Below, piece after piece: positions 4,137 through 53,231 of a DNA stretch of 64,000 bases (positions are counted from its first letter, which is position 1; each line of letters starts with the position of its first letter). Source of the stretch: Azospirillaceae bacterium (GTDB lineage Bacteria; Pseudomonadota; Alphaproteobacteria; Azospirillales; Azospirillaceae); assembly GCA_028283825.1 (NCBI GenBank), contig JAPWJW010000003.1:310001-374000 (forward strand). The letters are read 5' to 3'. Under the pieces are notes generated by a model. It was not told where the DNA came from, ran no database searches, and worked only from the letters and a program-made list of their open reading frames with translations. The translations under genes and the position numbers were made by a program.

Positions 4137-4231
4137 CCTCAAGCGCCGGCGGCTGCGTCCGCAGCCTTGGCTTCCTCGCATTCCAGTCCGCTGACGCTTC
4201 CCGGAAATCTCCGGCGGACGCCGTCGCGTCC
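4137..4231 (+). repeat. Dispersed three-hairpin intergenic element, copy 1
   Basis: Member of the six-copy family. Starts CCTCA; hairpin 1 is GGCTGC-gtcc-GCAGCC (4151-4166); hairpin 2 closes with ATTCC/GGAAA around a CAGTCCGC core; hairpin 3 is GGACGC-cgtc-GCGTCC (4216-4231), a perfect 6-bp stem. It begins 16 bases after the pump stop codon, in the same direction, and fills the gap between two convergent genes. Confidence 0.8.
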
Positions 4232-4247
4232 TAGTCACTTCGCTCCG

Positions 4248-4586
4248 TCAAATCACCTTTCCCTCAAAGGGATGCGACCCGTCGCGACTCTCCACCTCGA
4301 TCACCCACAGGTCGGGGTCGCGGCGGGTGGCGCGCTCGATGAAGGCGTCGGCCTCCGACTCCGGCACCTGGTCGCCGTTCAGGCCGGGGAACCAGCCGAG
4401 ATTGCCGTTCATGTCGCGGCTTTGGGTGTAGACCTTGGCACCCTGGAAGGGGATGACGACCTTCAGCAGGATCAGGCCGCTTTCCGCCTCGCCCTTGCGC
4501 AGGACGTAGACGGGGATGCTGTCGGCGGCACAGCGGCGCAGGTGCAGTTGCACCCAGAGGGCGGTGGACAGCCGGTCGTCGGCCAT
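4248..4586 (-). CDS. DUF1491 family protein
   Basis: Protein of 112 aa. The chosen start gives MADDRLSTALWVQLHLRRC, which matches the usual opening of the alphaproteobacterial DUF1491 family (short basic segment followed by LWV..YLRRC). The open frame continues 36 codons further upstream, but that part has no family character and lies in the divergent promoter region with surE. No signal peptide or membrane helix. The C-terminal half is acidic with the pattern ADAFIERATRRDPDLWVIEVE, also typical of the family. Molecular function is unknown. It converges with the efflux operon and diverges from surE with about 130 bases between the starts. Confidence 0.8.
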   Translation of the reverse strand: MADDRLSTALWVQLHLRRCAADSIPVYVLRKGEAESGLILLKVVIPFQGAKVYTQSRDMNGNLGWFPGLNGDQVPESEADAFIERATRRDPDLWVIEVESRDGSHPFEGKVI

Positions 4587-4714
4587 GGGCCTGGATTCCT
4601 GAATGAGGGGCGAAGACAGGGCAGGGCGGCGTCCTTGCGGCTTGCCAGCAGGGGCCCACCCCATGGATGTTCGGTTGGTATCTATAGGGTCCAACCATCC
4701 GCGAGGCCAGCTTC

Positions 4715-5482
4715 ATGCCGCTTTCCACCCCGCCCACCCGCCGCCTGGGCCGCGTCCTACTGACCAACGACGACGGCATCAATGCCCCCGGCCTGGCCCT
4801 GCTGGCTGAGGTGGTGGCGGAGGTCGCGGACGAGGTCTGGGTGGTGGCACCGGAAAAGGATCAGAGCGGCATGTCCCGCGCCGTCACCCTGACCACCCCC
4901 TTGCGGGCGGAACAGCGGGGGGAACGGCACTTCGCCGTCACCGGCACGCCCAGCGATTGCGCCATCTTCGGCCTCCGCCACGTGCTGCGCGACAATCCGC
5001 CGGACCTGGTGCTGTCCGGCATCAACCGCGGCGCCAACGTTGGTGATGAGGTGCCGTACTCGGGCACGGTGGCGGCGGCCCTGACCGCCCGGCTGCTGGG
5101 CGTGCCGGCCATCGCCTTCAGCCAGCAGTTCACTGACCGGACGCATGTGCGCTGGGACACGGCGCGGACGCTGCTGCCCCGGGTTCTGGACCATGCGCTG
5201 GGCCTGCGCGTGGCGGCCAACGCCGTGCTGAACATCAACTTCCCCGGCCTGGACGCGGCCGACGTGGGCGACATCGTGGTGACGACGCAAAGCCGGGGCA
5301 CCCTGGACCGCATCGATGTCGAGGCCAGGTCCGACCTGCGCGGCGGCGAGTATTACTGGATGGCGTTCCGTCGGCACATGCCCATCCTGGGGCCGGACAC
5401 CGATGCCGGCGCCCTGAAGCATGGCCTGGTTTCCATCACGCCGGTGGGGTTCGACCTGACCGCTACCGACGGCATAGCCTGA
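4715..5482 (+). CDS. surE: 5'/3'-nucleotidase SurE
   Basis: Cytosolic metal-dependent nucleoside monophosphate phosphatase (EC 3.1.3.5), 255 aa, the normal length. The N-terminal metal site TNDDGINAPG is at about residues 17-26, followed by APEKDQSGMS, the TPSDC motif and SGINRGANVGDEVPYSGTVAAA, all characteristic of SurE. The start lies 9 bases after a GAGG-type ribosome site. SurE is often placed with pcm and lipoprotein genes in other proteobacteria; here it stands alone, followed 90 bases later by a tiny lipoprotein gene. Confidence 0.96.
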   Translation: MPLSTPPTRRLGRVLLTNDDGINAPGLALLAEVVAEVADEVWVVAPEKDQSGMSRAVTLTTPLRAEQRGERHFAVTGTPSDCAIFGLRHVLRDNPPDLVLSGINRGANVGDEVPYSGTVAAALTARLLGVPAIAFSQQFTDRTHVRWDTARTLLPRVLDHALGLRVAANAVLNINFPGLDAADVGDIVVTTQSRGTLDRIDVEARSDLRGGEYYWMAFRRHMPILGPDTDAGALKHGLVSITPVGFDLTATDGIA

Positions 5483-5572
5483 CCGAGATCGCACTGGCCC
5501 GGCCCTTGCTTTCGTATAAACCCGAAAGGGCCGGGTGCCGGCCTTGATGCTAGACGGCAAAAGGGTTTCGCG

Positions 5573-5767
5573 ATGATGGGGACGTCGTTTTCCGTGGGCA
5601 ATGTCTGCCGGGTGGGCAAGATCGTGCTGACCGCCGGCCTGGTGCTGGGCGCGCTGGCCGGTTGTTCGGTGGTCGGTGCGGCCGGCAGTGTCGTGGGTGG
5701 TGCCGCGGATGTCGCCGGCACGGCGGTGGGCACGACCGCCAAGGTGGTCACGGCACCGGTCCGCTGA
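5573..5767 (+). CDS. Small putative lipoprotein
   Basis: A 64-residue product. A positively charged N-terminus is followed by a hydrophobic stretch and a lipobox (LAGC at about residues 28-31), so signal peptidase II cleavage would leave a mature lipopeptide of only about 34 residues. The mature part is Gly/Ala/Val-rich with repeated VVGAA/VVGGAAD/VAGTAVG units and ends TAPVR. Such entericidin-like or glycine-zipper-like small lipoproteins are common but their role is usually unknown. Two adjacent ATG codons (5573, 5576) can serve as start; an AAAGGG ribosome site lies upstream. Confidence 0.65.
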   Translation: MMGTSFSVGNVCRVGKIVLTAGLVLGALAGCSVVGAAGSVVGGAADVAGTAVGTTAKVVTAPVR

Positions 5768-5823
5768 TCCACCACCCGATGGCTCGGTACCATGGGCATG
5801 AGGTCCAGCCTTATGCCCATGTA

Positions 5824-5920
5824 GGACGCGACTGCGTCCGCCGGAGATTTCCGGGGAGCGTCAGCGGACTGGAAATCGAGGAAGGCAAGGGCGCGGATGC
5901 GCCCGCCCGCCGTCTGAGGG
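5824..5920 (-). repeat. Dispersed three-hairpin intergenic element, copy 2
   Basis: Minus-strand copy. Hairpin 1 pairs GGGCGC with GCGCCC around a 4-base loop (5889-5904); hairpin 2 pairs GATTTCC with GGAAATC (5846-5877); hairpin 3 pairs GGACGC with GCGTCC (5824-5839). It begins 9 bases after the diguanylate cyclase stop (5930-5932), read in the same direction, with a T-run between them. Confidence 0.8.
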
Positions 5921-5929
5921 CCAAAAAAA

Positions 5930-7597
5930 TCAACCCAGCTCAATGCGGTTGCGGCCGGCTTCCTTGGCGCGGTAGAGGGCGGCGTCCGCCGCCATGCTGA
6001 TGGTCTTGGCGTCCAGGCCGGGCGCCAGGCTCATGATGCCGGCGGAGAAGGTGACCTGGAATTCCGTGTTGCCGTGGATGTGGCGGATCTCGCTGAACTG
6101 CTGGCGCAGCACCTCCAGCCGTTCGGCCGCGTCGTCGGCCGAGGTCTGCGGCATGATGATGGCGAATTCCTCACCGCCATAACGGCCGACCATGTCGCCG
6201 CGCCGCATGCGCTGTTGCAGCAGCCGGGCCAGGGCCTTGATCACCCGGTCGCCGGCGCTGTGGCCGTAGCGATCATTCACCGCCTTGAAATGGTCGATGT
6301 CCAGCATGGCGAAGGCCAGGTCGTTGCCGTCGCGCTGTGACCGCGCCACCTCGGTCGCCAGCAAATCCATGATCATGGGGTTGTTGAAGGCGCCGGTCAG
6401 GCCGTCGCGCACCATCAAGGCCTTGAGCTGCCGCGCGCGCCGCGCGCGGGCACGGACCGTTTCCGTCAGGTCGCCCAGATCCACCGGCTTGGTCAAATAG
6501 GCGTCGATGCCGGTGCGGATCGCCGACCGGTGGGTCTCGGTATCCTGGTCCGCCGTCAGGAAGACGATGGGCAGGGCCAGGAAGGCGTCGTACTGGCGCA
6601 GGACGGAGGCCAGCTCGAACCCAGTGCATTGGGGCATGATCAGGTCGGTGACCATCAGGTCGGCGTTGTTGTCGTACAGCGCCTCCACCGTCTGCAAGGG
6701 ATCGGTCACCAGGCTGGTCTGCATGCCGGCCGATTGCAGCGCCATCTCGTAATACCGGCCCAGCGTGGCGTCATCCTCCACGATCACCACGCGCAGGGGC
6801 TGGTCCGGATCCCGTTCCGTCAGGCGGTCCAACTGGTCGATCAGCACGTGGGTGTCCAGCGGCCGCACCACATAGGCGTCGCACCCGGCCCGGGCGGCGG
6901 CCAGGCGCGCCGCGAAACCGGTGGCCGACGACAGTGCGATGACCGGTATCTTGCGCCCCCGGCTGTCGGTGGCATCCATCTGCGCGGGCCGCAGCGTTTC
7001 CGTGCTGATATCCAGAAGGATCGCCGCCGGTTTCGACTGGGCGACGGCCGCCGTCAGGGCGGCCTCATCGGTAAAGGCGGTCAGTTCATAACTGTAGGTC
7101 GCCAGAAGCTCCGTCAGTTCCCGCACGTCCGTGCCGTCATGATGCAGCAGATAGACGGGCCGTGACGGGCCGTCGTGCGCCTGTCCCTGTTCTTCGAAGG
7201 CGGGATCCGGCGTGGTTCCGGATGCCGCCGGCGCCATGGCGTGGCCCAAGGCCGCGATGGCGTTCCACAGCGAGGTCGCCTGCACATCCCCCGGCCGCTT
7301 GATCACGCCCTCCAGCGTGCGGGCGGCGATGGTCAGGTCGGGCAGGCCGAAGGTGGCGCCCGATCCCGCCAGCGAATGGGTGTAGCGCGCCAGGTCGCCC
7401 CTGACCGCCTCCGCCTCACTGCCGCTCTGGGTCACCAGGGCCGTCGCCGCCTGCCGGATCTGCTCCAGCCGGTCCGGCAGGCTGGACATGAAGTCCTCCC
7501 GGATCTTCTGGACCCGCGCCGCCAGCTCTGCTGGCAGGGTGGAGGAACCCAGGCCGGACGCCGCGATATTGGAGGGGGAGGGCGCGTCGCTGTTCAT
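5930..7597 (-). CDS. Hpt-REC-REC-GGDEF diguanylate cyclase
   Basis: c-di-GMP-forming output protein of 555 aa. Domains in order: an Hpt domain (phosphorylatable His in THSLAGSGATFG, roughly residues 15-115); a degenerate receiver (150-255) that keeps the LLDIS aspartate but lacks the N-terminal acidic pair and has Arg for the final Lys; an intact receiver (260-380: VEDD, VTDLIMP, LTAD, LTKPVD); and a GGDEF domain with the active motif GGEEF near residue 474. An inhibitory I-site RRGD sits five residues before it, so product inhibition is expected. The ATG at 7597 is preferred over 7621 because the latter lies inside the upstream gene. It is the last gene of a kinase/regulator cluster. Confidence 0.92.
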   Translation of the reverse strand: MNSDAPSPSNIAASGLGSSTLPAELAARVQKIREDFMSSLPDRLEQIRQAATALVTQSGSEAEAVRGDLARYTHSLAGSGATFGLPDLTIAARTLEGVIKRPGDVQATSLWNAIAALGHAMAPAASGTTPDPAFEEQGQAHDGPSRPVYLLHHDGTDVRELTELLATYSYELTAFTDEAALTAAVAQSKPAAILLDISTETLRPAQMDATDSRGRKIPVIALSSATGFAARLAAARAGCDAYVVRPLDTHVLIDQLDRLTERDPDQPLRVVIVEDDATLGRYYEMALQSAGMQTSLVTDPLQTVEALYDNNADLMVTDLIMPQCTGFELASVLRQYDAFLALPIVFLTADQDTETHRSAIRTGIDAYLTKPVDLGDLTETVRARARRARQLKALMVRDGLTGAFNNPMIMDLLATEVARSQRDGNDLAFAMLDIDHFKAVNDRYGHSAGDRVIKALARLLQQRMRRGDMVGRYGGEEFAIIMPQTSADDAAERLEVLRQQFSEIRHIHGNTEFQVTFSAGIMSLAPGLDAKTISMAADAALYRAKEAGRNRIELG

Positions 7598-7602
7598 GTC
7601 GT

Positions 7603-7989
7603 CTACCCGACGCTGCCCCACAGGTCGCGGACGGTGGTGGGCAGGGCCATGGGGTCGAAGGGCTTGGCGATCACGCCGATGGCGCCCAGCGCCTTGAACC
7701 GTTCCACCTCCGACGGCTGGACCTTGGCGGTCATGAAGGCGATGGGGACGCCGGCCAGGCTGGGGCGTCCGCGGATGGCGGCCAGGGTGCTGGGGCCGTC
7801 CATCTCCGGCATCATGGCGTCCAGCAGGATCAACTGCGGTGTCCAGCCGTCCAATATCTCCAGCGCGCGGGCACCGGACTCGGCCATCTGGATGTCGAAC
7901 CCGCCGACATGTTTCAGGCTGAGTTCGACGATGGCGCGGATATCGGGCTCGTCATCGACGTAGAGGATACGGTTCAGTGCCTCGGCCAT
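7603..7989 (-). CDS. Single-domain response regulator (CheY-like)
   Basis: A stand-alone receiver of 128 aa with every catalytic element: the acidic pair in YVDDEPD, the phospho-acceptor Asp in LILLDAMMPEMDG, Thr/Ser in FMTAK and the Lys in IAKPFD. There is no output domain. It lies between a membrane histidine kinase and an Hpt-containing diguanylate cyclase, all on the minus strand, with only 5 bases to the cyclase start. The order suggests a relay from kinase to receiver to Hpt, but that flow is inferred from gene order only. Confidence 0.93.
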   Translation of the reverse strand: MAEALNRILYVDDEPDIRAIVELSLKHVGGFDIQMAESGARALEILDGWTPQLILLDAMMPEMDGPSTLAAIRGRPSLAGVPIAFMTAKVQPSEVERFKALGAIGVIAKPFDPMALPTTVRDLWGSVG

Positions 7990-8146
7990 ACTGCCTCGCG
8001 TTCTTTGCGGAAAACGGCCATCCCCACGGGGGTGGGCCGCTTTCCCCAGGCGGTCCTAGAAGTCGCTAGGGTAGCTGCCCCATACAACCCACGCAAATGG
8101 AGTCCCGCCTGCCGCGCCGGACGGGGAGGGAAGCTATTCTTTAGCG

Positions 8147-10276
8147 TCAGTGCGGTAGTCCGGCCGCGAATCCGGGCTCGGATCGGGCGGGCGGCAGGGT
8201 GAGGACGAATTCGGTGTCGCCGGGGTGGCTGTTCAGGGTGACATGACCGCCGTGGCGTTCCACGATGGCCTTGACGATCGACAGCCCCAGGCCATTGCCG
8301 CCCTTCTGCCGGCTGTCGGATGAATCGGCCTGGGCGAACTTCTGGAACAGGCGCGGCCGGAACCAGTCGGGCACGCCGGGGCCGGTGTCGTGCACCGACA
8401 GGCGGATGCGCCCCTCCGCCGCCCCGCCCATGACGGTGACGATGCCGCCCAGGTTGGAATATTTGATGGCGTTGGAAATCAGGTTGCCCAGCACCTGGCG
8501 CAGGCGGCGCGGGTCGCCCACCACCGGCAGCGGGCCGCCGTCGCTGTAGCGCAGGGTGACCGTGCGCTCCTCCGCCAGGGGACGCAGATTTTCCACCGCC
8601 TCCGCCGCCAGTTCCGACAGGTCCAGCTTTTCCGACTTCAGGTCCAGGGTGCCGGATTCGATGCGTTCGATGTCCAGCAGGTCGTTGACGATGGCGATCA
8701 GCCGCTCGGCGTTGCGGTCGGCGATGCGCAGCAGGTTCTGCGTCTGCGTCGGCAGGGCGTCAGGCAGGCCCAGCGCCAGGCGGATGGAGCCGTGGATGGA
8801 GGTCAGCGGCGTGCGCAATTCATGGCTGACGGTGGAGATGAAGGCATCCTTCATGCGCTCTACCTCCTTGCGGTGGGTGATGTCGCGCAGCACCAGTGTA
8901 TAGAGCGGCCGTTCCTCCGTCTGGCTGACGGTGACCGTCAGCTCCGCCGGGAAGCGCCGCTCCTCGCCGCGCACCTCGACCTCACGCGGGCCGTTGCCCT
9001 CCAGCGCCAGGGGCAGCCACAGGGCACCGGCCGCGCGGCCGGGGATGATTTCCACGGCCTCTTGCGGTGCGTCGCCGTCCGCCACCGGCATTTCCCGCCC
9101 GTCTTCGGCTGCCGCGCCGGTCTTCAGGCCGGGCAGGGTCAGGAAAAGGTCAACATCGGTGCCCAGCAGCTGGCGCACGTCCCGGCCCAGCATCTCGGCG
9201 GCGGCGCGGTTGGCGGACAGGATGACGCCGCTGTCGGTGATGGTCAGGACGCCGTCTGCCAGGCTGTTCAGGATGACGTCCAGCCGCTCCCGGCTTTCAT
9301 GCACGGTGGACAGCATGCGTCGTTCCAGGGCCTGGCGCTCCTCCCGCCGGCGTTCCCGCTCCTGTCCCTGTTCCTTCAGCGCCTGCAGGGCGCGCGCCAT
9401 GGTGCCCAGTTCATCCCGCCGGCCGGCGCCGGCGATGGCCACGTCGGTATGTCCCCGCGCCAGGCGCCGCAGCGATCGCGTCAGGGCGACGATGGGCAGC
9501 ACCAGGCTGCGCGACAGCAGCAGCCAGATACCCAGGGCGGCGGCCAGCACCAGCCCGCCGCCGGCCAGGATGCCCCACAGGCCGTCGGCTTGCGCGTCGC
9601 GCTGGCGAATCAGGGCGTCATCCAGCGCCGTCTTCTGGGCGGTGGTGATCACGTCCAGGGTGGCGCGCACCGCGTCCATGGCGCGTTTGCCGTTCAGGGC
9701 GCGGGTGGGGTCGCGGGCTGTCACGCGGGTCGTGGGGGCGCTGGCCAAGGCCAGGGTGGGGGTGGCGTAGCCGTTCTGCCAATCGCGGACCTCGGCGCGC
9801 AGTTCGTCCATGCGCCGTTGCTGGTCACTGTCGCCCTGGGTCAGGGCCTCCAGCCGGGCCAGGCGGTTCTCCACCGCCTGCGATCCCTGCCGCAATGGTT
9901 CCAGGAAGGTGGGGTCGCCCGCGACGATATAGCCGCGCAGGCCCGTTTCCTGGTCGATCATGGCGGCGCGCACCGCCTCCGCCGCCTGGATGATGGTCAG
10001 GGCCTGCTGGCTGGCACCGGTGGTGGTGACGATGACGTCAATCTTGCGCAGGCCCCACAGGGAAACGGCGGCGACCAGGACGAACAGGGTGGCGAAGGCC
10101 AGGAACAGGCGGTTGGGAATCGATAGGCCGCGGCGGCCGGTCTCCGGGCCGGACTCGTCCGGCGGAATGGGGATGTTGCTTGCCGCGTCGGGGAAGGGTG
10201 CACCCGGGTGGGGCGCCGGGTGGGACGGACTTTGATGCGTTTCCTCGCGCACCCAGGTGGTGGGATCTTGAGTCAT
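8147..10276 (-). CDS. Membrane sensor histidine kinase (CHASE3-HAMP-PAS-HisKA-HATPase)
   Basis: A 709-residue sensor. After a Pro-rich cytoplasmic start comes TM1 (about 55-75), a periplasmic CHASE3-type helical domain (QETGLRGYIVAGDPTFLEPL is the family signature), TM2, a HAMP linker (RSLRRLARGHTDVA), a PAS domain with an insertion (about 335-470), the H-box STVSHELRTPL near residue 480, and a HATPase_c domain with NLISNAIKYS, HDTGPGV and NGLGLSI. No receiver is fused, which fits the separate regulator just downstream. The ATG at 10276 is chosen because the 25 codons upstream look non-coding. The signal sensed is unknown. Confidence 0.93.
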   Translation of the reverse strand: MTQDPTTWVREETHQSPSHPAPHPGAPFPDAASNIPIPPDESGPETGRRGLSIPNRLFLAFATLFVLVAAVSLWGLRKIDVIVTTTGASQQALTIIQAAEAVRAAMIDQETGLRGYIVAGDPTFLEPLRQGSQAVENRLARLEALTQGDSDQQRRMDELRAEVRDWQNGYATPTLALASAPTTRVTARDPTRALNGKRAMDAVRATLDVITTAQKTALDDALIRQRDAQADGLWGILAGGGLVLAAALGIWLLLSRSLVLPIVALTRSLRRLARGHTDVAIAGAGRRDELGTMARALQALKEQGQERERRREERQALERRMLSTVHESRERLDVILNSLADGVLTITDSGVILSANRAAAEMLGRDVRQLLGTDVDLFLTLPGLKTGAAAEDGREMPVADGDAPQEAVEIIPGRAAGALWLPLALEGNGPREVEVRGEERRFPAELTVTVSQTEERPLYTLVLRDITHRKEVERMKDAFISTVSHELRTPLTSIHGSIRLALGLPDALPTQTQNLLRIADRNAERLIAIVNDLLDIERIESGTLDLKSEKLDLSELAAEAVENLRPLAEERTVTLRYSDGGPLPVVGDPRRLRQVLGNLISNAIKYSNLGGIVTVMGGAAEGRIRLSVHDTGPGVPDWFRPRLFQKFAQADSSDSRQKGGNGLGLSIVKAIVERHGGHVTLNSHPGDTEFVLTLPPARSEPGFAAGLPH

Positions 10277-10515: not shown

Positions 10516-10601
10516 GGCAACTTTAGCGCTATGCCCCCGGTTGTACGGCTGCCATGCGCGTTAATCGCCCCTGGTCAGGGGGGACATGCCGCATGAGGCC
10601 C

Positions 10602-27325: not shown

Positions 27326-28366
27326 GGCTCCAGCCTGCGGTTGATTGTTTATATTCAATTAACATTCCAGCTTTCAGCCGCTGAATTTCGCGGATGACGC
27401 CATGGTAATTCTAGGCTCCTGACGCGATCCTGACACCATCCGATACTCTGCTGCAAGTGCGAAAAAGAGTTGAGTTGGCCTATGCCTACCCCGTTAGTCG
27501 CGCTTCTTTTCAATGCGCCGTCCGTCGCGCGCCGGCGACGTTCTGGGGCCGCGCGTGTCGGACCGTGGGACTTGTCCAGGATAGTCGGATCAACGCCATG
27601 AACCTATTGGGAATCTTGGTAGCGACACCGCCGGGAGGGTAGTCCTTTCCGGCTAGAAGGGAAGGGATACCTGGGATTGCGGGCCGCTCGGCTGGTATGA
27701 GCGGGGCGCGTCGGCAAGGCTTTGAAGACGCTCGCCGTCCTGCACCGGCGACCTTGGCCGCCTTTGATCGCAAGGCCGCGGGACCGGCTGGTTTGTCACG
27801 TTTGTACTGCGCATGCGCACCCATGTCCTGGGGCGTGGCAAGTCGCTCCGAGACATGGGCTCCAAGGATTGGCCAGGATCGGCGGCTTTTCTCTATCATC
27901 TTGGATTTGCATGTCCATTTCTCGCGAATACTGTCACGCGCCGATCTCCGCCGTGCCGCGTTTACGGCGGCATTTACTTGCATAATTGTTGATAACCCTG
28001 ATGGGCCCAGGTGGTTCATCTTGTGGACGACATATACGTTGGCACCATCAATGACCTTTCTTGGGAACCCGCTCGGGGCGGCCGATTCGTCCCTGAACGC
28101 GGTTTGGGCTTGAACGCGGATTGGGAAAAGGCGGCGGTTGGGCATCTCCTGGTCCTGTATGCGCGCCTTGCCCAGGCGTGTGCCACGCGTCTCCCGGTCA
28201 GATTCCCTGGAAAAAAGGACACGATCTTTAGGGATAGGGCCGGTGAAGGGGCCGTGGCGGTTGATCCGGTATCGCCATGGGCACCGGATCGGTTAGGGTC
28301 TGCCCTCCCCGGCGGGGCGGTGCCAAGCGCCGTTCCCCCAAGTCACACCTAACGGCGTTATCCGTC
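27326..28366. other. 1-kb gene-free region upstream of the restriction endonuclease
   Basis: Several frames of 60-211 codons cross this region on both strands, but none has a recognisable motif, sensible composition and ribosome site together. AT content is raised at the left end (27240-27460) and near 27960. No tRNA, SRP RNA or repeat copy was found. It may be eroded coding DNA, a landing site of foreign DNA, or a long regulatory region. Confidence 0.5.
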
Positions 28367-29170
28367 ATGTTCCCGACCCTGCTAGAACGCGGTTTCCAGG
28401 TGGAATTCCATTCCCATGCGCGGGCCATCCTGGGGGTGGATTTCCCCGATGCCATCGCCGAACTGGACATGGTCATCGGTGCCCTGGCGATTCCCATTGC
28501 GGAAATCGTCGGGTCGGGCGGGGGGGAGGCCAAGATCACGCAGCGCCTGCGTCACGCCCTGTCGGATCATGGCTGGGCCAAGGCGCATTTCACCATCGAG
28601 AAGCGGGTGAACGGCAAGCGCCGCGAGTCCATCAGCCATGAGGTCGACCACGTGCGTGACGTCCCCGGCGTGGGCGTGATCGCGCTGGAGATCGAATGGA
28701 ACAACAAGGACCCGTTCTTCGATCGCGACCTTGAGAACTTCAAGCGCCTGCATGCGGAGGGCGTCATTTCCGTCGGCGTCATCGTCACGCGCGGGCGCAG
28801 CCTGCAGGACGAGATGGTGCCCATGGTGCGCCGCTTCGCCCACAGCCGCGGGCTGGCCTCCGATGCCGACATCCAGGCCCTGGGCCTGCGGCCCACCACC
28901 CGCCAGCAGGACGACGTCAGCCGCCGCCTGGCCGGTGGCGCGCCGTCCTTCGCGGAGGCCTGGGCCGCGTCCTTCTGCCAGGACAAGTACGGGGCGGCCA
29001 CCACCCATTGGCGCAAGCTGGAGGACCGGGTGCACCGGGGCGTGGGCAACCCGTGCCCGCTGCTGCTGATCGGCATTCCGGCCGACGTCGTCACCTTCGA
29101 CGTCCCACTGTCGGAAATGCCCAAGGCGCCGATACCGGAGCCAATCGAGGCGGAGCTGCCTTTCTTTTAA
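28367..29170 (+). CDS. BglII/BstYI-like type II restriction endonuclease
   Basis: A 267-aa protein. The central segment EVDHVRD ... GVIALEIEWNNKDPFFDRDL followed by ISVGVIVTRG matches the core of the BglII/BstYI/BamHI group, where an Asp is followed after a beta turn by Glu-x-Glu/Gln; here the pair would be the EIE after the Asp of VDHVRD. That group cuts palindromes around GATC, but the exact target of this enzyme cannot be read from the sequence. The ATG at 28367 is preferred to upstream codons that lie in non-coding-like DNA. No methyltransferase or control protein is adjacent, so the usual restriction-modification pair is incomplete here. A hairpin repeat starts 3 bases after the stop. 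Confidence 0.75.
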   Translation: MFPTLLERGFQVEFHSHARAILGVDFPDAIAELDMVIGALAIPIAEIVGSGGGEAKITQRLRHALSDHGWAKAHFTIEKRVNGKRRESISHEVDHVRDVPGVGVIALEIEWNNKDPFFDRDLENFKRLHAEGVISVGVIVTRGRSLQDEMVPMVRRFAHSRGLASDADIQALGLRPTTRQQDDVSRRLAGGAPSFAEAWAASFCQDKYGAATTHWRKLEDRVHRGVGNPCPLLLIGIPADVVTFDVPLSEMPKAPIPEPIEAELPFF

Positions 29171-29173: not shown

Positions 29174-29272
29174 CCTCAGGTGGCGGGCGGCCACGTCCGT
29201 GGCCTTGCCTCATCCTCGTTTTGCAGTCCGCCTGCGGCTCCCCGCAAAACTCCGGCGCTCGCGGTCGCGGGC
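29174..29272 (+). repeat. Dispersed three-hairpin intergenic element, copy 3
   Basis: Hairpin 1: GGCCAC-gtcc-GTGGCC (29189-29204). Hairpin 2: GTTTTGC (29218-29224) with GCAAAAC (29244-29250), differing at two paired positions from GATTTCC/GGAAATC in copies 2 and 5. Hairpin 3: GCTCGC-ggtc-GCGGGC (29257-29272, one T-G pair). It begins 3 bases after the stop of the endonuclease gene, in the same direction, and lies between convergent genes. Confidence 0.8.
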
Positions 29273-29296
29273 TATTCAGCTTCCGTCGCGCTTATG

Positions 29297-32906: not shown

Positions 32907-32908
32907 TT

Positions 32909-33006
32909 CCTCAAACGCCGGCAGCCGCATCCGCGGCTTTGGCTTGTCCTCGACTACCAGTCCGCTTCGCTCCCCGGAAGTCTCTGGCGCCCGCGGTCAC
33001 GACCGG
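32909..33006 (+). repeat. Dispersed three-hairpin intergenic element, copy 4
   Basis: Hairpin 1: AGCCGC-atcc-GCGGCT (32923-32938). Hairpin 2: GACTACC (32952-32958) with GGAAGTC (32976-32982), where T to C is matched by A to G; one A-A mismatch. Hairpin 3 is degenerate (only GGTC/GACC remains), so the right end is approximate. It begins 2 bases after the puuA stop, same direction. Confidence 0.72.
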
Positions 33007-46565: not shown

Positions 46566-46586
46566 GGTTAATCGGGATGCCCCGTC

Positions 46587-47507: not shown

Positions 47508-47557
47508 GCCGGCGGTTCCCCCGACCGGTCGGGGGAACCTGCCATGGCGGTGGGTAC

Positions 47558-47917: not shown

Positions 47918-48053
47918 GGCCTAAGCTCCTTTACTTGGCATCGTCTTTCAGGGGATTTGTCTGCTCCCCGTGTCGGGGATGCCTATAAGACGCCGGCCGT
48001 GCTGGTTTATTCCCGAGTACTGAAAATATTTTGAATTTTTGCGAAAGCCCGGC

Positions 48054-48509
48054 TTAGTCTTCCACATCGCCGAGATGCGCGCGAAGATTATGGATCTGGG
48101 CGATCCAGCCGCCCTCGTTCATGCGCAAGGCTTCCGCCCGGCGGGCGCTGGGCAAATTGTCGAAGCCGCTTTCGGTGATGGTCAGGTGGGTGCCGCCGTC
48201 GCGGGGCTCCAGGTGGAATTCCACCTGGGTCGGCTCTTCGTCCGAATAATCGCGCGCCGCATCCACCGCATAGGGATGCCAGGTGTAGGAGAGCAGGCGG
48301 GGCGGCGTCACCGCCACCACCGTCGCCTGCCATTCCACATGCTCGTACCCCGGATAGGTGATGCGGCCTCGCGATTCCTGGCCGGGGACGAAGGGCCCGT
48401 CCAGCTTCACCCGGAACCAGGTGCCGAATTCGACAGGGTCGGATAGGGCCCGCCATACCCGCTCGACCGGAGCGGCCAGTTCCACGTGCTTCTCAATGCG
48501 ATCAGACAT
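48054..48509 (-). CDS. SRPBCC/AHSA1-type protein
   Basis: A 151-aa START-like (helix-grip) protein. The opening IEKHVELAAPVERVWRALSDPVEFGTWF and the later GGTHLTITESGF ... GWIAQIHNLRAHL fit the activator-of-Hsp90-ATPase homologue 1 (AHSA1) domain. Such proteins bind hydrophobic ligands; the function is usually unknown in bacteria. It is last in a run of minus-strand genes that starts with an SrpA-like catalase, but the 48-base gap to the anti-sigma gene leaves its membership in that operon open. Confidence 0.85.
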   Translation of the reverse strand: MSDRIEKHVELAAPVERVWRALSDPVEFGTWFRVKLDGPFVPGQESRGRITYPGYEHVEWQATVVAVTPPRLLSYTWHPYAVDAARDYSDEEPTQVEFHLEPRDGGTHLTITESGFDNLPSARRAEALRMNEGGWIAQIHNLRAHLGDVED

Positions 48510-48557
48510 CCGGCCCTCCAGGGTTGCGCGGCGGTAACCCCCGAAGGCCGGAATGGT

Positions 48558-49364
48558 TCAGATCTTGGCGCGGATCTGCCGGCGCGCCTCATCCGCCAGG
48601 GGATGCAGGGCCTGGGGCGGGGCATCGGCCACCAGGCTGTAGCCCATGCCCTGGTTGCTCCAGGTGACGCCGCCCACCATTTGTCCGGCGGTTTCCTGGC
48701 GGTGTTCGGACATGGGCGCGTCCATGTCCACGGTCATGGGCCGCACCATCATGGCGATGCGGTTGCCGCCGGCGTCGTCATAGAAAAACATGGCGCCGGC
48801 GCCGTGGGCGGTGGCGATCAGCCGGCCGCCCATGAAGCGGTAGCCCGAGGCCGACAGGTCGGGCACGGCGACCGGCCGATCCAGGCGCTTGGACACCCAT
48901 TGCAGCAGTTGCTGTTCCTCGCCGGCGCGCATTTCCACCGGCCGCAGGCTGTCGGCGGCATAGACGCGGTAGTTGTCCATGGCCTCCTGCGTCAGGGCGT
49001 TGACGCCGCTCAGCGGCGCCTTGGCCGCCATGCCGTGCATGGACCAGCCGCCGGCCCCACCCACCACCAGCAGCAGCACGGCGGCGGCGAGGTTGCGCCA
49101 GGGGCCAGCCCAGGCGCGCGCCTGCCGGTCGCGCCGCGCCTCGATCAGGCGGGCCAGGTTCAGGCTGTCGGGCACCGGTGCGTCCACGATGGGGGCCAGC
49201 GCCTCACGCAGGGCCGCGCGCTGCAGGGTGTACGTTGCCACGCGCTGTGCCGCCTCGGCATGGCGGGCTAGGTAATCTTCGATCTCCGCCCGGCGCCCGG
49301 CGTCCAGGGCGCCATCGACATAGGCCTGCAAGTCTTCCTCGGTGATGGGGCGACCCGCGTTCAT
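48558..49364 (-). CDS. Membrane anti-sigma factor
   Basis: A 268-aa protein encoded immediately after, and overlapping by 4 bases, the ECF sigma gene. An N-terminal helical sigma-binding region (ITEEDLQAYVDGALDAGRRAEIEDYLARH) resembles the anti-sigma domain but without the zinc ligands Cys-x2-Cys. One transmembrane helix (about 92-108, LAAAVLLLVVGGAGG) is followed by a periplasmic domain of about 150 residues. Presumably it holds the sigma factor at the membrane until an envelope or oxidative signal arrives. The role is inferred from the gene pair and topology. Confidence 0.85.
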   Translation of the reverse strand: MNAGRPITEEDLQAYVDGALDAGRRAEIEDYLARHAEAAQRVATYTLQRAALREALAPIVDAPVPDSLNLARLIEARRDRQARAWAGPWRNLAAAVLLLVVGGAGGWSMHGMAAKAPLSGVNALTQEAMDNYRVYAADSLRPVEMRAGEEQQLLQWVSKRLDRPVAVPDLSASGYRFMGGRLIATAHGAGAMFFYDDAGGNRIAMMVRPMTVDMDAPMSEHRQETAGQMVGGVTWSNQGMGYSLVADAPPQALHPLADEARRQIRAKI

Positions 49365-49909
49365 TTCACTCTCCTGAAGATCGAGGCGCCGAAATTGGGG
49401 CGGTGGATGGTGGCGCCCGCCGGCTCCCCCTCCATGTGTTGCGCCAGCTTTTCCCGTGCCCGCGCCAGGCGGGACATGACGGTGCCGATGGGGATGTCCA
49501 GCACGCGCGCGGCCTCGGCATAGGACAGGTCCTCCACCGACACCAACAGCAGCACGGCGCGCTGGTCCTCCGGCAGGGTGTCCAGGGCGCGCAGCAGGTC
49601 GGCATGGCGCAGCGCGTCCTCCTGCGTCGGTGGGCGGCTGAGCGCCGGTTCCGCGACCGCGTCGTCCAGCGCCACCTGGCCGCCGCGCCGCCGGTTCTGG
49701 CGGATGTGGCTGACGGCCAGGTTGTGCAGGATGGTGAACAGCCAGGTGCGGGCGTCGCCGTCCGCCCGGCGCTGGTGCCAGCGGGTGATGGCCCGCTCCA
49801 GGCAGTCCTGCACCAGGTCGTCGGCGGTGGCCGCATCCCGCACCAGCGCCCGCGCGTAGCGGCGCAGGGGCGGGATCAGCGGTTCCACCAGTTGCATCAT
49901 GTCCTTCAT
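49361..49909 (-). CDS. ECF-family RNA polymerase sigma factor
   Basis: A 182-aa extracytoplasmic-function sigma factor. Region 2 (about 12-80): RYARALVRDAATADDLVQDCLERA and ARTWLFTILHNLAVSHIRQ; region 4 (about 110-165): LPEDQRAVLLLVSVEDLSYAEAARVLDIPIGTVMSRLARAREKL. The start at ATG 49909 gives the usual length. It lies between a cytochrome b561 gene and its anti-sigma gene, and the chain of overlapping starts and stops points to one operon with the SrpA-like catalase upstream. That suggests autoregulation of a peroxide-related module, by inference. Confidence 0.93.
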   Translation of the reverse strand: MKDMMQLVEPLIPPLRRYARALVRDAATADDLVQDCLERAITRWHQRRADGDARTWLFTILHNLAVSHIRQNRRRGGQVALDDAVAEPALSRPPTQEDALRHADLLRALDTLPEDQRAVLLLVSVEDLSYAEAARVLDIPIGTVMSRLARAREKLAQHMEGEPAGATIHRPNFGASIFRRVK

Positions 49910-50475
49910 GGCACGCGCCTCTTGGCCGCCCTGCCTATCGCCGGGTGCGCCAGCTCGCCATGCTCTGGAACACGCCGTCCTTGAAGATGAAGGCATGCAT
50001 CAGTGCTGCCGACAAGTGGCGCGATGACCACCAGGAACAGGGCGTACGCCAGGTAGGTGTGCAGGTGGCGCAAGCTGGCGTACAGCGCGCGGTCCATTTC
50101 CATCAGCGGCGGCAGGTGCAGCAGGCCGCCCCAGACGATGATGGGATAGCCCCCCGCCGACAGCATGGACCAGCCCACCAAGGGCAGGGCGATCATCAGC
50201 GCGTACAGCACAAGGTGGGAGGCGTGGGCGATGGCCTTCTGCGGCAGCGGCATGGCGGCGGGCAGGGCCGGCGGCGACCGCGTTGCGCGTACGGCCAGGC
50301 GGATGACCACCAGGGCCAGGATGGCGACACCGATGGATTTGTGCAGCGGCACCAGCCAGTTGTGCGCCGGCCCGACGGTGGCGACCATGCCGGCGCCGAT
50401 GAACAGCATGGCGACGATCAGCCCGGCCATCAGCCAGTGCAGGATCCGCGCGGCGGCGGTAAACGTGGGGGTCAT
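49906..50475 (-). CDS. Cytochrome b561 family protein, apparently frameshifted near the C-terminus
   Basis: Di-haem membrane cytochrome of about 185 aa with four helices (about 10-30, 45-62, 88-108, 140-155); His residues at the start (ARILHWLM), in LHKSIGV and in LRHLHTYLAY are expected haem ligands. After LVVIA the encoded frame reads PLVGSTDACLHLQGRR, which is unlike the family. Skipping one base at about 50019-50023 restores a normal ending, AHLSAALMHAFIFKDGVFQSM followed by ASWRTRR and a stop at 49935. So the present frame probably carries a one-base insertion or a sequencing error. The start overlaps the catalase stop by 4 bases. Confidence 0.8.
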   Translation of the reverse strand: MTPTFTAAARILHWLMAGLIVAMLFIGAGMVATVGPAHNWLVPLHKSIGVAILALVVIRLAVRATRSPPALPAAMPLPQKAIAHASHLVLYALMIALPLVGWSMLSAGGYPIIVWGGLLHLPPLMEMDRALYASLRHLHTYLAYALFLVVIAPLVGSTDACLHLQGRRVPEHGELAHPAIGRAAKRRVP

Positions 50476-51584
50476 CGCGCGGTCTCCTTCGGGGCGGGCA
50501 AGGCTGCGTCGTGGGCCAGGGCGCTGATACCAGCCGGCTCACCCGTACGGCGGGTGTAGCCGACGGCGTAGACGGAAGAGCGCGCCGCCAGCAGCGGGTC
50601 GTCGGACGGCGCCACGCCGGCCGGCAGGATGGTGGGGTCGAAATTGACGTCACGGCAGGGGCCGTCATCCTCCGTCACCGCGCGGTCGATGGTCAGGGTG
50701 CCGACCTCCACCCGCTGGCGATCCTCCGGCCAGGCCTTGGTGGCGTCGTCCAACGGGTCGCCTGGGTTGGGCAGCACGATGGACATGTGCCAGGTCAGCG
50801 GCCCCTGGGCCAGGCGGCCCGCCACCTCGTCGAACAGGAAGTCGCGCGGCTGGGTCGCCAGCGTCGCCTTGTCCAATTCCGCGAACGGCGTGTCGGGGGT
50901 GAACACCCAGCGCACCGGGCGCGTCCCGCCCTCGGCATTGGTGAAGCGGAAGGTGTTCACGCTGTTGTAGGTGCCGTTGGCGAAGCTGGAGGGCAGGGGC
51001 GCCTTGGCTAGGTAATCGACGAAGGCCTTGGTTTCCGGATGCTGGGCCATATAGGCCGCCGCCTTGGCCGGGTCCGGCTTGCCGGTGGCGGGATCGGGCG
51101 TGGTCGCCAGCTGGAAATCCAGGAAGGCCTGGGGTGTCGCCACCGGGAAGACGGGCACATGGTTCATGGCCATGCGCCACTGCTCCCCATCCGCTAACTG
51201 GAACTTCAGCGCCAGGCTGTGGAAGACGACACGGCCGTCAGGCGCCATGGGCACGCCGCCGGCCAGGGAAAAGCGGCCGACGACCGGCGTGGTGGTGGGG
51301 CCGAAGATGCCGGCCTTGCTGAGCGCCAGGCCCTGGCCGTTGCCGTCGAAATGCCCGATCACGCACAGGCCCTTGGCATGGGCGCGGCGATACCCTTCAT
51401 GCCGACCGTCGTGGCCCTCCAGCGCGTTGACGATCCGGGCGGGTTTAAGGGCGCCCGGTGTCAGCCAGCCGCCGGCATAGGCGAAGGCGGCGGTGGCGCC
51501 GCCGGCCACCACAGCGATGGCCGCCAGCGGCAGCAGGCTGCGTCGGCTGAGGATGTCTTTGATACCGTAGGAACCTTGCGGCAT
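50472..51584 (-). CDS. SrpA-like catalase family peroxidase
   Basis: A 370-aa protein of the short catalase-related family. The N-terminus has a membrane anchor or signal segment (LSRRSLLPLAAIAVVAGGATAA, about 14-35), with an RR pair that might permit Tat export. The catalase-like core includes the HAKGLCVIGHFDGNGQG segment with the distal His and VNTFRFTNAEGGTRPVRW; such proteins bind haem and act as peroxidases rather than true catalases. The C-terminal VYAVGYTRRTGEP contains the expected proximal Tyr region. It is first of an overlapping gene chain with cytochrome b561, ECF sigma and anti-sigma genes. Confidence 0.88.
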   Translation of the reverse strand: MPQGSYGIKDILSRRSLLPLAAIAVVAGGATAAFAYAGGWLTPGALKPARIVNALEGHDGRHEGYRRAHAKGLCVIGHFDGNGQGLALSKAGIFGPTTTPVVGRFSLAGGVPMAPDGRVVFHSLALKFQLADGEQWRMAMNHVPVFPVATPQAFLDFQLATTPDPATGKPDPAKAAAYMAQHPETKAFVDYLAKAPLPSSFANGTYNSVNTFRFTNAEGGTRPVRWVFTPDTPFAELDKATLATQPRDFLFDEVAGRLAQGPLTWHMSIVLPNPGDPLDDATKAWPEDRQRVEVGTLTIDRAVTEDDGPCRDVNFDPTILPAGVAPSDDPLLAARSSVYAVGYTRRTGEPAGISALAHDAALPAPKETAR

Positions 51585-51702
51585 GGGGCACGCTCCCTGG
51601 AAACAGGTCGGGCCCGTTGCCGGGCCGCCGATATCCAGGTTGACGCTGGCGCCGCCGGTTTATTCCCGGCGCCCCAAAACTTTTTCTGATTTTCTTTCGA
51701 TA

Positions 51703-51800
51703 GGCCCCGACCGGGGCCGCCGGAGATTTCCGGGGAGCCGTAGGCGGACCGGAAATCGAGGATAAGCCAAAGGCGCGGACGCGCCTGCCGGCGCCTGAGG
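51703..51800 (-). repeat. Dispersed three-hairpin intergenic element, copy 5
   Basis: Minus-strand copy. Hairpin 1: AGGCGC with GCGCCT (51771-51786). Hairpin 2: GATTTCC with GGAAATC (51725-51757). Hairpin 3: GGCCCC with GGGGCC around a 4-base loop (51703-51718), perfect. It begins 8 bases after the stop of the MFS gene, in the same direction, and ends about 120 bases before the catalase gene. Confidence 0.8.
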
Positions 51801-51808
51801 AACAAGAA

Positions 51809-52999
51809 TTAATGCGCGAAGCTGACCCTGTCTTCGTCACCCTCTTCCGCCGGCAGGCCGGGGTCGGTGGCGGCGGAGAATGCGGTCAGCCCCAGGGCGC
51901 AGACGGCCAGGCCGGCGCCCAGCCAGGGCAGGCTGCCGTATGCGACACCCTGGTCGATGGCGATGCCGCCGAACCAGGCGCCCAGCGCGTTGCCCATGTT
52001 GAAGGCGCCCTGGTTCAGGGTGCTGGCCAGGTTGGGCGCGCCCCGCGCCTGGTCCACCACCCGCATCTGCAGGGGGGACCCGACGGAGAAGGCGGCGATG
52101 CCCCACAGCACCAAGGTGGGCACCGCACTGATCACGGTGGCGCTGGTCCACACCAGGGCCACCAGGATCAGGGCGATGATGCCGAAGGTGGTCATGACCA
52201 CCGGCATCATCTTCCAGTCGGCCAGCCGCCCGCCCAGCAGGTTGCCCACCGTCAGCCCCACGCCGAACAGCAGCAGGACATAGGTCACCTGGTCCGGCGT
52301 CAGGCCGGTCACGTGCTCCAGCAAGGGCGTGATGTAGGTCAGCACGCTGAACAGGCTGGCCGAGGAGATGACGCTGATCAGCATGGCCATGATGACCTGC
52401 GGCCGGGCCAGTACGCGGAATTCACCCAGCAGGCCGCCGGCGCTGCCGCCGGGCAGGTTCTTCGGCAACCAGATGGTCAGCGCCGTGGCGGCGACCAGGC
52501 CAATGATGACCACGGCCCAGAAGGTGGCGCGCCAGCCCAGCTCATGCCCCAGGGCGGTGCCCAGCGGCACGCCCAGCACGTTGGCGAGCGTGAGGCCGGA
52601 GAACATCAGGGCCACGGCCTGCGCCCGGCGGTGGCGCGGCACCAGGCCGGAGGCGACCACGGCACCGATGCCGAAGAAGGTGCCGTGCGACAGGGCGGTG
52701 ACGATACGCGCCGCCATCAGCAGGCCGTAGGTGGGGGCCAGCGCGCAGAACAGGTTGCCGATGATGAAGATGCCCATCAGGCCGATCAGCGCCCGCTTGC
52801 GCGGCAGCCGTGCCGTCGCCACCGCCAGCAGCGGGGCGCCCACCACCACGGCGAGCGCGTATGCGGTGACCAGCATGCCGGCCTTGGGAATGCTGACGCC
52901 CAGATCCTGCGCCAGATCCGGCAGCATGCCCATGATGACGAATTCGGTGGTGCCGATGCCGAAAGAGGCGATGGCGAGGGCAAGCAGCGGCAGGGGCAC
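51809..52999 (-). CDS. MFS efflux transporter (DHA1 family)
   Basis: A 396-aa, twelve-helix major facilitator. The opening LALAIASFGIGTTEFVIMGMLPDLAQDLG is the hallmark of the AraJ/YdhP-like drug or sugar exporters; the second helix contains VGAPLLAVATARLPRKRALI (motif A region) and SHGTFFGIGAVVAS lies in helix 5. The substrate is unknown. The gene is read away from a nested inverted repeat at 53070-53099 that may be an operator. A hairpin repeat copy follows its stop. Confidence 0.9.
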   Translation of the reverse strand: MPLPLLALAIASFGIGTTEFVIMGMLPDLAQDLGVSIPKAGMLVTAYALAVVVGAPLLAVATARLPRKRALIGLMGIFIIGNLFCALAPTYGLLMAARIVTALSHGTFFGIGAVVASGLVPRHRRAQAVALMFSGLTLANVLGVPLGTALGHELGWRATFWAVVIIGLVAATALTIWLPKNLPGGSAGGLLGEFRVLARPQVIMAMLISVISSASLFSVLTYITPLLEHVTGLTPDQVTYVLLLFGVGLTVGNLLGGRLADWKMMPVVMTTFGIIALILVALVWTSATVISAVPTLVLWGIAAFSVGSPLQMRVVDQARGAPNLASTLNQGAFNMGNALGAWFGGIAIDQGVAYGSLPWLGAGLAVCALGLTAFSAATDPGLPAEEGDEDRVSFAH

Positions 53000-53141
53000 C
53001 GAAAACGCTCCGGAAATCTAAGGTGGCGGGGGGGCCGTTCCGGAGCATCGCCCAAAAAGGGTAAGCGCTGTCATGCTGCGTTGCAGCAGGTGCCATGACG
53101 GAATAGTTGAGGACACAAGCGTTTGTTGGAGGCGTGCCTTC

Positions 53142-53231
53142 CCTCAAGCGCCGGGCGCGACCTCTGGTCGCTTGGCTTCCTCAGTTCAAGGGCGTTCCGC
53201 CCTTAAACTTCCGGCGGCCCCCGTCGAGGCC
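53142..53231 (+). repeat. Dispersed three-hairpin intergenic element, copy 6
   Basis: The most divergent copy. Hairpin 1: GCGACC-tct-GGTCGC (53157-53171). Hairpin 2 is longer than elsewhere: GTTCAAGGGCG with CGCCCTTAAAC (53184-53208, one mismatch). Hairpin 3: GGCCCC-cgtc-GAGGCC (53216-53231, one mismatch). Unlike the other copies it does not follow a same-strand gene; it lies between the 5' end of the MFS gene and the 3' end of the next minus-strand gene. Confidence 0.72.

What the first reader, a model, noticed from the sequence alone, without database searches (positions are those of the whole stretch)
4137..53231. Six-copy family of intergenic elements with three hairpins kept by compensatory changes
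Copies at 4137-4231, 5824-5920 (minus), 29174-29272, 32909-33006, 51703-51800 (minus) and 53142-53231 share CCTCA, a variable hairpin, a CAGTCCGC core inside a second hairpin, CTCCGGCG and a third GNNCNC hairpin. Stem sequences differ but pairing is retained: hairpin 1 is GGCTGC/GCAGCC, GGGCGC/GCGCCC, GGCCAC/GTGGCC, AGCCGC/GCGGCT, AGGCGC/GCGCCT and GCGACC/GGTCGC; hairpin 2 is GATTTCC/GGAAATC or GTTTTGC/GCAAAAC; hairpin 3 is GGACGC/GCGTCC or GGCCCC/GGGGCC. That is covariation, the mark of a selected RNA or DNA structure. About one copy per 11 kb suggests hundreds in the genome.
Basis: seen in the sequence. Interest (0 to 1): 0.72.

Follow-up and report, generated by a model that had tools for sequence, protein, structure and literature searches.

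The report
Hundreds of hairpin repeats, unknown mover
This soil bacterium's genome is peppered with roughly four hundred copies of a short DNA repeat made of three or four hairpins whose paired arms change together from copy to copy; relatives of it occur in many alphaproteobacteria, and it looks like a small mobile parasite whose moving machinery is not yet known.

Summary
The six copies are where stated. The genome (Nitrospirillum, 7.16 Mb) has 266 strict pattern matches, reversed control 0; a sample not chosen for hits holds 52 in 864 kb, 410-430 per genome extrapolated. Pairing and double-sided stem changes far exceed shuffles. The unit is hp4 (58 of 123 copies)-TAG-hp3-hp2-AAGCCAAG-hp1-TGAGG. 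An hp1 model matches 39 of 385 alphaproteobacterial genomes drawn. In this genome copies favour convergent gaps and nearly avoid divergent ones, without clear orientation bias in tandem gaps. Sites are empty, or hold inverted or different elements, in sister species. Inherited copies show 0 double and 7 single stem changes at 3 sites; similar paralogs differ mostly by compensated changes. Best reading: a REP/BIME-like non-autonomous mobile repeat whose hairpins serve its own spread, not an RNA kept site by site. No Y1 transposase was found in 7 of 7 genus genomes; the mover is unknown. All 4 IS110 copies found sit in hp1. No earlier description turned up in Rfam or eight paper searches.

The parts
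4137..4233 (-). copy 1 (strand given = TAG-to-TGAGG reading; CCTCA end at 4137)
   Evidence: 111.1 bits; between AcrB-type gene 980-4120(+) and DUF1491 gene 4248-4586(-), convergent
5822..5919 (+). copy 2, TAG-hp3-hp2-hp1-TGAGG
   Evidence: 112.7 bits; convergent, 10 nt from the stop of a GGDEF gene; no model hit in the orthologous stretches of 6 of 6 relatives, 3 to 73 nt between the aligned flanks
5791..5821 (+). hp4 of copy 2: 14-bp hairpin directly before TAG, taken as part of the inserted DNA
   Evidence: fold; in G005 the aligned left flank stops 56 nt before the element and only 3 nt lie between the flanks
29174..29274 (-). copy 3, GGC/GCC variant of the outer hp1 helix
   Evidence: 96.3 bits; 3 nt after the stop of a BglII-type endonuclease gene, convergent; model hits with other stems at the same site in G001, G002, G003, G006, decayed remains by eye in G005
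32909..33006 (-). copy 4, hairpin 3 broken
   Evidence: 91.5 bits; 2 nt after the stop of a glutamine-synthetase-type gene, convergent; another element at the same site in G001, G002, G003, G006 and an inverted short-type one in G004
51701..51800 (+). copy 5
   Evidence: 109.2 bits; tandem gap, 8 nt from the stop of an MFS gene
53142..53233 (-). copy 6, different hairpin 2 (CAAGGGCG type)
   Evidence: 76.3 bits; tandem gap; 36-37 nt of other sequence at the site in G002, G003, G006
53234..53252 (-). hp4 of copy 6 (CAGCGGC...GCCGCTG)

Best explanation
A high-copy, non-autonomous mobile repeat of the general REP/BIME kind, built of three to four hairpins. Shown: its anatomy, copy number, covariation, presence/absence differences between species, and intergenic placement. 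Inferred: a factor acting in trans recognises the shape of the hairpins and the conserved unpaired parts (TAG, AAGCCAAG, the GGAY loop, TGAGG) on one strand, as RNA or single-stranded DNA, and copies the unit to new intergenic places. Stem letters are therefore free but pairing is needed for spread, so active lineages keep pairing while settled copies decay. Insertions survive behind genes (convergent and tandem gaps), rarely in front of them. Hairpins are exchanged between copies (hp1 type is independent of hp2 and hp3). The moving enzyme is not identified; it is not a recognisable Y1/RAYT transposase of the same genome.
For: Copy number. Covariation. Empty, inverted or different elements at orthologous sites: no copy 2 in 6 of 6 relatives; L282:2677 in G006 and L291:17568 in G002 are inverted relative to each other with 93-96% identical flanks. 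Decay after insertion: 0 double, 7 single changes at 3 inherited sites; at a fourth site 0 double, one substitution and a 1-nt indel; against 350 compensated, 121 one-sided still paired, 61 one-sided broken and 16 double broken among 131 similar paralog pairs. Placement: sample not chosen for hits 31 convergent, 16 tandem, 0 divergent, 5 edge; expected shares 0.16, 0.55, 0.29. Tandem orientation 28 against 23. Strand asymmetry of mismatches: 42 G.T against 13 A.C on the TAG-to-TGAGG strand; 8 against 2 in a count without the model. Hairpin independence: hp1-hp3 p 0.25, hp1-hp2 p 0.87, hp2 taken by its two outer bases. Short direct arrays, e.g. L146 9021-9337.
Against: No mover found: Y1_Tnp in 0 of 7 genus genomes; no hp1 half with cargo in 1.26 Mb (halves lacking hp1 were not sought). 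No target-site duplication or exact junction was seen; flanks align only to within some nt of the ends. The inherited set is small and picked by hand, and 3 of its 7 changes keep a G.T pair. hp2 and hp3 are weakly linked (p 0.01). Some sites are occupied in several species in the same orientation, which retention could also explain. In loci of other taxa tandem orientation is 41 against 28 and 9 of 110 classifiable copies are in divergent gaps.
Confidence: 0.65

Rival explanations
1. Host-useful 3'-UTR RNA element kept by selection at each site: mRNA 3'-end protection or bidirectional transcript end between convergent genes, as proposed for E. coli REPs.
For: Strong preference for convergent gaps; the CCTCA end is within 16 nt of a stop codon in 57 of 94 copies that face one, and the outer end of hp4 within 20 nt of the next gene in 31 of 58; strand asymmetry towards G.U. 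Br-REP1 in Bradyrhizobium lies in overlapping 3'-UTRs with complementary transcripts (PMC5082802, section 15 read).
Against: Uncompensated changes in inherited copies; empty sites in sister species; no clear orientation preference relative to the upstream gene in this genome, 28 against 23; no T enrichment beyond hp4 (133 of 464 bases) and an A-rich tail after TGAGG, so not intrinsic terminators (one search finds no terminator-like site at copies 5 and 6).
Confidence: 0.18
2. Covariation without selection on structure: palindrome correction by template switching, or gene conversion between copies, makes arms match.
For: Stems are almost perfectly matched (98.2%); hairpins reassort; known behaviour of quasi-palindromes (recalled, not looked up).
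Against: No correction event in the few inherited copies compared, although mismatches persist there; mismatches are strand-asymmetric, 42 against 13, which symmetric correction would not give; pairing is kept across many taxa.
Confidence: 0.12
3. Mobilised by a REP-type tyrosine transposase supplied by another replicon or an earlier host, i.e. ordinary REPs with lost RAYT.
For: TAG directly before a hairpin in 5 of 6 window copies, like the GTAG tag of REPs; Y1_Tnp occurs in 11 of 35 genomes of one draw, among them G010, G011 and G041 that carry the repeat.
Against: Not found in the 7 genus genomes nor in G017, all with dozens or more copies; none of 10 fetched Y1_Tnp loci (up to 1.5 kb each side) has a model hit better than E 0.5.
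Confidence: 0.1

Closest known systems
GTAG REPs/REPINs/BIMEs with RAYT transposases (Di Nocera 2013, PMC3733652; abstract, passages, sections 5, 6, 8, 14 and part 1 of 17 read)
   Same: Hundreds of intergenic palindromes, between convergent and tandem genes, varying complementary stems, G-T pairs, clusters, tag next to a hairpin.
   Different: Three to four different hairpins in a fixed order and polarity instead of one hairpin or an inverted pair; longer conserved unpaired linkers; no RAYT found.
CGTC REPs of alphaproteobacteria (same paper)
   Same: Class, abundance, no dedicated transposase, placement; the paper lists A. lipoferum among the species with CGTC REPs.
   Different: Those are single 8-9 bp hairpins that nearly always begin with AT pairs, tagged CGTC, tail mostly CCA, and are reported missing from Acetobacteraceae. 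Here hp1 and hp3 are 5-7 bp G+C-rich stems in an array, and hp1 occurs in Acetobacteraceae records. The paper's consensus figure was not available.
Br-REP1/Br-REP2 of Bradyrhizobium (PMC5082802, section 15 read)
   Same: Three neighbouring stem-loops, about 200 sites, overlapping 3'-UTRs of convergent genes; fast turnover between relatives.
   Different: Central palindrome (its 16 middle bases) is not in the window with up to 2 mismatches; no AAGCCAAG/TGAGG parts in the printed consensus.
RIME and other rhizobial mosaic elements (title in a reference list of PMC2873474; the rest recalled)
   Same: Intergenic mosaic of palindromes in alphaproteobacteria.
   Different: Sequence not compared here.
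IS621-type IS110 elements that target REPs (PMC11208160, passages read; PMC1525189, search listing only)
   Same: An IS110 element inserted at one place of the repeat around a possible CT core, with an antisense stretch in its noncoding end.
   Different: It is a parasite of the repeat, not its mover; the target is the hp1 linker GCTTGGCT.

Membership tests
REP/BIME (RAYT-linked) | High-copy short extragenic palindrome | tested here: met
REP/BIME (RAYT-linked) | Placement behind genes, not in divergent gaps | tested here: met
   (1 of 118 classifiable copies divergent); in loci of other taxa 9 of 110
REP/BIME (RAYT-linked) | Y1 (RAYT) transposase in the genome or beside copies | tested here: not met
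   (Pfam Y1_Tnp only)
REP/BIME (RAYT-linked) | GTAG tag at the hairpin foot | tested here: inconclusive
   TAG precedes hp3 in 5 of 6 window copies, but the base before it varies (C, G, A, A, G)
CGTC REP | CGTC (or TGTC, CCTC) tag, 8-9 bp stem starting with AT pairs, CCA tail | tested here: not met
   by eye for hp1 and hp3 on stems listed, against the text of PMC3733652 section 6 (figure not held); hp4 and the palindrome after TGAGG were not compared
Known Rfam RNA | Match on the element | tested here: not met
   window, gathering cut-off; 8 related loci, E up to 1
Br-REP1 | CCGGAATCTCGAGATTCCGG palindrome | tested here: not met
   (16 middle bases, up to 2 mismatches, window only)
MITE | Terminal inverted repeats and target-site duplication shared with an IS | tested here: inconclusive
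   no inverted ends or duplication seen by eye; not compared with the IS elements of the genome

The most novel reading that the evidence does not exclude
A class-wide small mobile element that spreads through a folded single strand, possibly an RNA intermediate, with hairpins as exchangeable modules recognised by shape, moved by an enzyme family unknown for such repeats. The strand asymmetry of G.U against A.C, free stem letters, module independence and lack of a recognisable Y1 transposase all allow it.
Probability: 0.2. Interest if true: 0.85.

Novelty: new variant of a known kind. Interest (0 to 1): 0.6.

Why it matters
It is an undescribed repeat, as far as Rfam and the papers searched show, that occupies 29 of 129 convergent gene gaps sampled in one genome and whose hp1 module recurs in 21 labelled alphaproteobacterial families. 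It gives a natural library of stem sequences on one scaffold, a warning that covariation among repeats need not mean function at each site, a new natural target of an IS110 element, and a concrete open question: what moves it.

Tried and rejected
Rfam (at the gathering cut-off, at E up to 1 on eight related loci): nothing on the element; the best listed match, a CC2171 match below its cut-off in L180, lies away from the repeat used to fetch that locus. RAYT as mover: not supported in this genus. Intrinsic terminator: no T enrichment. A multi-branch junction closing GCCGG/CCGGC: two of the six copies lack one of its five pairs, the GGC/GCC variants, so I left it out of the consensus. Search for hp1 halves carrying a gene: three cores outside model hits, two of them a further short subtype, one apparently inside a gene and judged chance. 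A first pattern with wrong spacing found nothing. Gene annotation for the Niveispirillum record: none held. Papers: 8 of 10 searches used; searching for printed strings of the element gave two papers on other organisms (listing only). In one search I used a wrong register for hairpin 2 of one set; one search repeats it correctly but leaves out the copy 3 site and the G003 copy, which adds. Gene calls are from my own codon-usage script; Pfam supports 9 of the 10 flanking proteins of the window copies that I submitted.
Full report
WHAT WAS CHECKED. The six copies are real and where stated. A pattern of their conserved parts matches the window six times and none of 100 shuffles, and the whole genome 266 times (131 forward, 135 reverse) with 0 matches of the reversed control. 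The window lies in contig C3 of a 7,162,758-base genome in 5 contigs. Of those 61 sources, the window plus 40 stretches, all from the first 874 kb of C3, were not chosen for hits: 864 kb with 52 hits, 6 of them in the window, which extrapolates to 410-430 per genome without or with the window. The other 20 stretches were mostly chosen because hits were known there.

ANATOMY. hp1 is flanked by a three-pair helix GCC/GGC that appears as GGC/GCC in a minority (3 of 42 cores; 16 of 110 parsed copies by their 5' part), a further double change. hp4, a long hairpin right before TAG, was detected in 58 of 123 copies with full flanks (arm at least 9, at most one mismatch); other copies have different sequence there. 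At copy 2, the orthologous site of G005 lacks the DNA of hp4 together with the element, so I count hp4 as part of the unit. Some copies carry a further palindrome after TGAGG. Shorter subtypes differ in hp2.

COVARIATION. On the 126 hits, 98.2% of cells form a standard pair (shuffled mean 73.6%), 574 cells are changed on both sides (shuffled 168.7), covariation score 0.570 (0.161); 0 of 500 shuffles reach these three, and sliding the arms destroys them. The plain number of pairs with any double change, 16, is less telling (shuffled 14.5; 28 of 500 reach it). That alignment was fitted to the model, and shuffles do not remove shared ancestry. Two sets are less open to the first objection. The 42 hp1 cores from many taxa give 99.7% against 74.4%, 91 double-changed cells against 31.5, 0 of 500 each. 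And 135 matches found by a pattern that left four positions of each arm free have all four pairs Watson-Crick in 122 cases, 521 of 540 cells, with 34 distinct arm pairs. In the genome, hp1 has 39 and hp3 24 distinct arm pairs among 110 copies parsed of 126. hp1 type is independent of hp3 (p 0.25) and of hp2, taken by its two outer bases (p 0.87); hp2 and hp3 are weakly linked (p 0.01), as are hp1 and its outer helix (p 0.01); hp3 and its own loop are linked (p 0.0005). So hp1 behaves as a module exchangeable with the rest.

STRAND. Mismatches in the stems are not symmetric. In the TAG-to-TGAGG strand there are 42 G.T against 13 A.C cells, leaving out two inner hp2 pairs, one of them usually G.T (p 1e-4; the model was built on this strand, which may favour G.T). 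For hp1 plus hp3 alone in that count it is 21 against 9. A regex count without the model gives 8 against 2 for hp1 over all held sources, and a count on 110 parsed copies 11 against 3. In the pattern-selected set it is 3 against 1, and 0 against 1 in the genome's own pattern matches. These counts overlap in copies. They point, with modest strength, to a folded strand of that sense, RNA or single-stranded DNA.

WHERE IT SITS. With my own gene finder, the 126 hits fall in convergent gaps 66, tandem 51, divergent 1, edge of a stretch 7, overlapping a called gene 1. In the sample not chosen for hits the counts are 31, 16, 0 and 5 edge, against expected shares of 0.16, 0.55 and 0.29 of intergenic bases for convergent, tandem and divergent gaps (p 1e-14 for convergent, 1e-7 for divergent), and 29 of 129 convergent gaps are occupied. 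The CCTCA end lies within 16 nt of a stop codon in 57 of the 94 copies where it faces one; the TA end lies within 20 nt in only 7 of 89 (median 47), but where hp4 was detected its outer end is within 20 nt of the next gene in 31 of 58. In tandem gaps the two orientations are 28 and 23. Pfam supports 9 of 10 flanking proteins of the window copies. In the loci, which include some Nitrospirillum, the finder gives tandem 69, convergent 32, divergent 9, edge 42, and tandem orientations 41 and 28, so the avoidance of divergent gaps is weaker there and an orientation preference is not excluded. No T enrichment follows hp4, and the bases after TGAGG are A-rich.

TURNOVER. Six genus mates were compared. 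Copy 2: no model hit in the orthologous stretches of 6 of 6, 3 to 73 nt between aligned flanks; G003 and G006 keep a 73-nt piece with a hairpin that may be a relic. Copy 1: 28 nt in G001; in the other five the flanks lie 1.9-2.0 kb apart, not printed, without a model hit. Copy 5: 43, 134 and 199 nt without the element in G005, G003 and G002, 2.4 kb not printed in G004 and G006, not aligned in G001. Copy 6: 36-37 nt in G002, G003 and G006, 3.4-3.5 kb not printed in G004 and G005, not aligned in G001. Copy 3: model hits with other stems, some decayed, in G001, G002, G003 and G006, decayed remains by eye in G005, 41 nt of other sequence in G004. Copy 4: one shared element in G001, G002, G003 and G006, an inverted element of the short, Niveispirillum-like type in G004, and an unclear remnant in G005. 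Elsewhere, G006 and G002 hold elements in opposite orientation at one site with 93-96% identical flanks, and at another site G002, G003 and G004 hold different elements while G006 keeps only hp4 and part of hp3. With about a fifth of convergent gaps occupied, repeated independent insertion is expected. I saw no target-site duplication and could not fix the junction to the base.

WHAT THE COVARIATION MEANS. If host selection kept the structure at each site, inherited copies should show compensated changes. In three inherited sets (copy 4 site in G001, G002, G006; L279/L290; L276/L285) there are 0 double changes and 7 single ones, of which 3 keep a G.T pair. Adding the G003 copy brings no further stem change, and adding the copy 3 site of G002 and G006 brings 0 double, one substitution and a 1-nt indel. 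Among 131 similar but unlinked paralog pairs (at least 86% identity), 350 stem differences are compensated, 121 one-sided but still paired, 61 one-sided and broken, 16 double and broken. Pairs share copies and are not independent, and the inherited set is small and hand-picked. The contrast fits a unit whose pairing matters while it spreads and not after it has settled.

HOST RANGE. R1 finds the unit in 23 of 59 genomes drawn from relatives, own genome included. In the loci that I printed, similar hairpins precede hp1; this was judged by eye and not counted. A model of the hp1 core (R2) matches 39 of 385 genomes drawn from the class at E <= 1e-4, in 21 labelled families by my count of the table, some by a single or weak match, and 14 of 398 drawn from the phylum at E <= 1e-6, all 14 in the window's class, own genome included (the output does not say how many of the 398 are outside it).

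WHO MOVES IT. Pfam Y1_Tnp has no match in the 7 genus genomes, own included, nor in G017, which has many copies; it occurs in 11 of 35 genomes of that draw. None of the ten such loci fetched, up to 1.5 kb on each side, has the repeat beside it (two hits at E 0.5-0.9 are noise). No hp1 half with cargo turned up in 1.26 Mb; halves without hp1 were not sought. Other transposase classes were not searched genome-wide as movers.

A PARASITE OF THE REPEAT. The genome has 4 matches to the IS110 family domain Transposase_20. All 4 lie in the same spot of hp1's linker, between GCTTG and GCTTGGCT (the protein of one copy checked), one of them in an element of the short, Niveispirillum-like type. The noncoding end of the insertion contains TAGCCAAGC, antisense to 9 nt of the target across the insertion point; 23 of 1000 mononucleotide shuffles do as well, so this is suggestive only. 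IS110 elements that use REPs as targets are known (PMC11208160, passages; PMC1525189, listing only).

COMPARISON WITH WHAT IS KNOWN. It works like a REP/BIME family, and it fails one defining test of RAYT-linked REPs, the transposase. By the text definition its hp1 and hp3 are not CGTC REPs (PMC3733652, sections read), and Br-REP1's palindrome is not in the window, though Br-REP1, three stem-loops between convergent genes with complementary transcripts, is the closest in style. The claim that it is undescribed rests on Rfam and eight paper searches; most subscription papers are not covered.

VERDICT. A real, abundant and widespread hairpin-array repeat; best read as a non-autonomous mobile element with an unknown mover; new variant of a known kind.

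Noticed in passing
L133:16212-17356, L150, L151, L152 (genome G000): An IS110-family insertion of about 1145 bp; all 4 matches found in the genome sit at the same point of hp1 of this repeat, and its noncoding end holds 9 nt antisense to that target.
   Followed up: partly
window 28277-29170 (+): Protein with a BglII-type restriction endonuclease domain (Pfam PF09195, E 9.5e-24) ending 3 nt before copy 3.
   Followed up: no
L146:9021-9337; G000:C1:518065-518314; C3:1217343-1217566: Direct arrays of three copies about 104-126 nt apart; the L146 copies are 96-99% identical to each other.
   Followed up: no
L090:9197-9269 (G004): A Niveispirillum-like short element with long flanking palindromes inside a genus mate of the window, at the site where others have the local type; possible transfer between genera.
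   Followed up: partly
L032, L048, L124, L140 and others, just after TGAGG: A separate A+T-richer palindrome (type TTTGATCGGTCACGATCAAA) follows the element in a number of copies; similar palindromes flank it in the Niveispirillum-like loci.
   Followed up: no
L213, L224 (Sphingomonadaceae): Some hp1-TGAGG ends lie a few tens of nt before an ATG with an A-rich spacer, i.e. possibly in 5' leaders, unlike the usual place in Nitrospirillum (by eye).
   Followed up: no
L180:1494-1655: Rfam CC2171 (Caulobacter sRNA) match at 61.7 bits, below its cut-off of 75, in Roseococcus.
   Followed up: no
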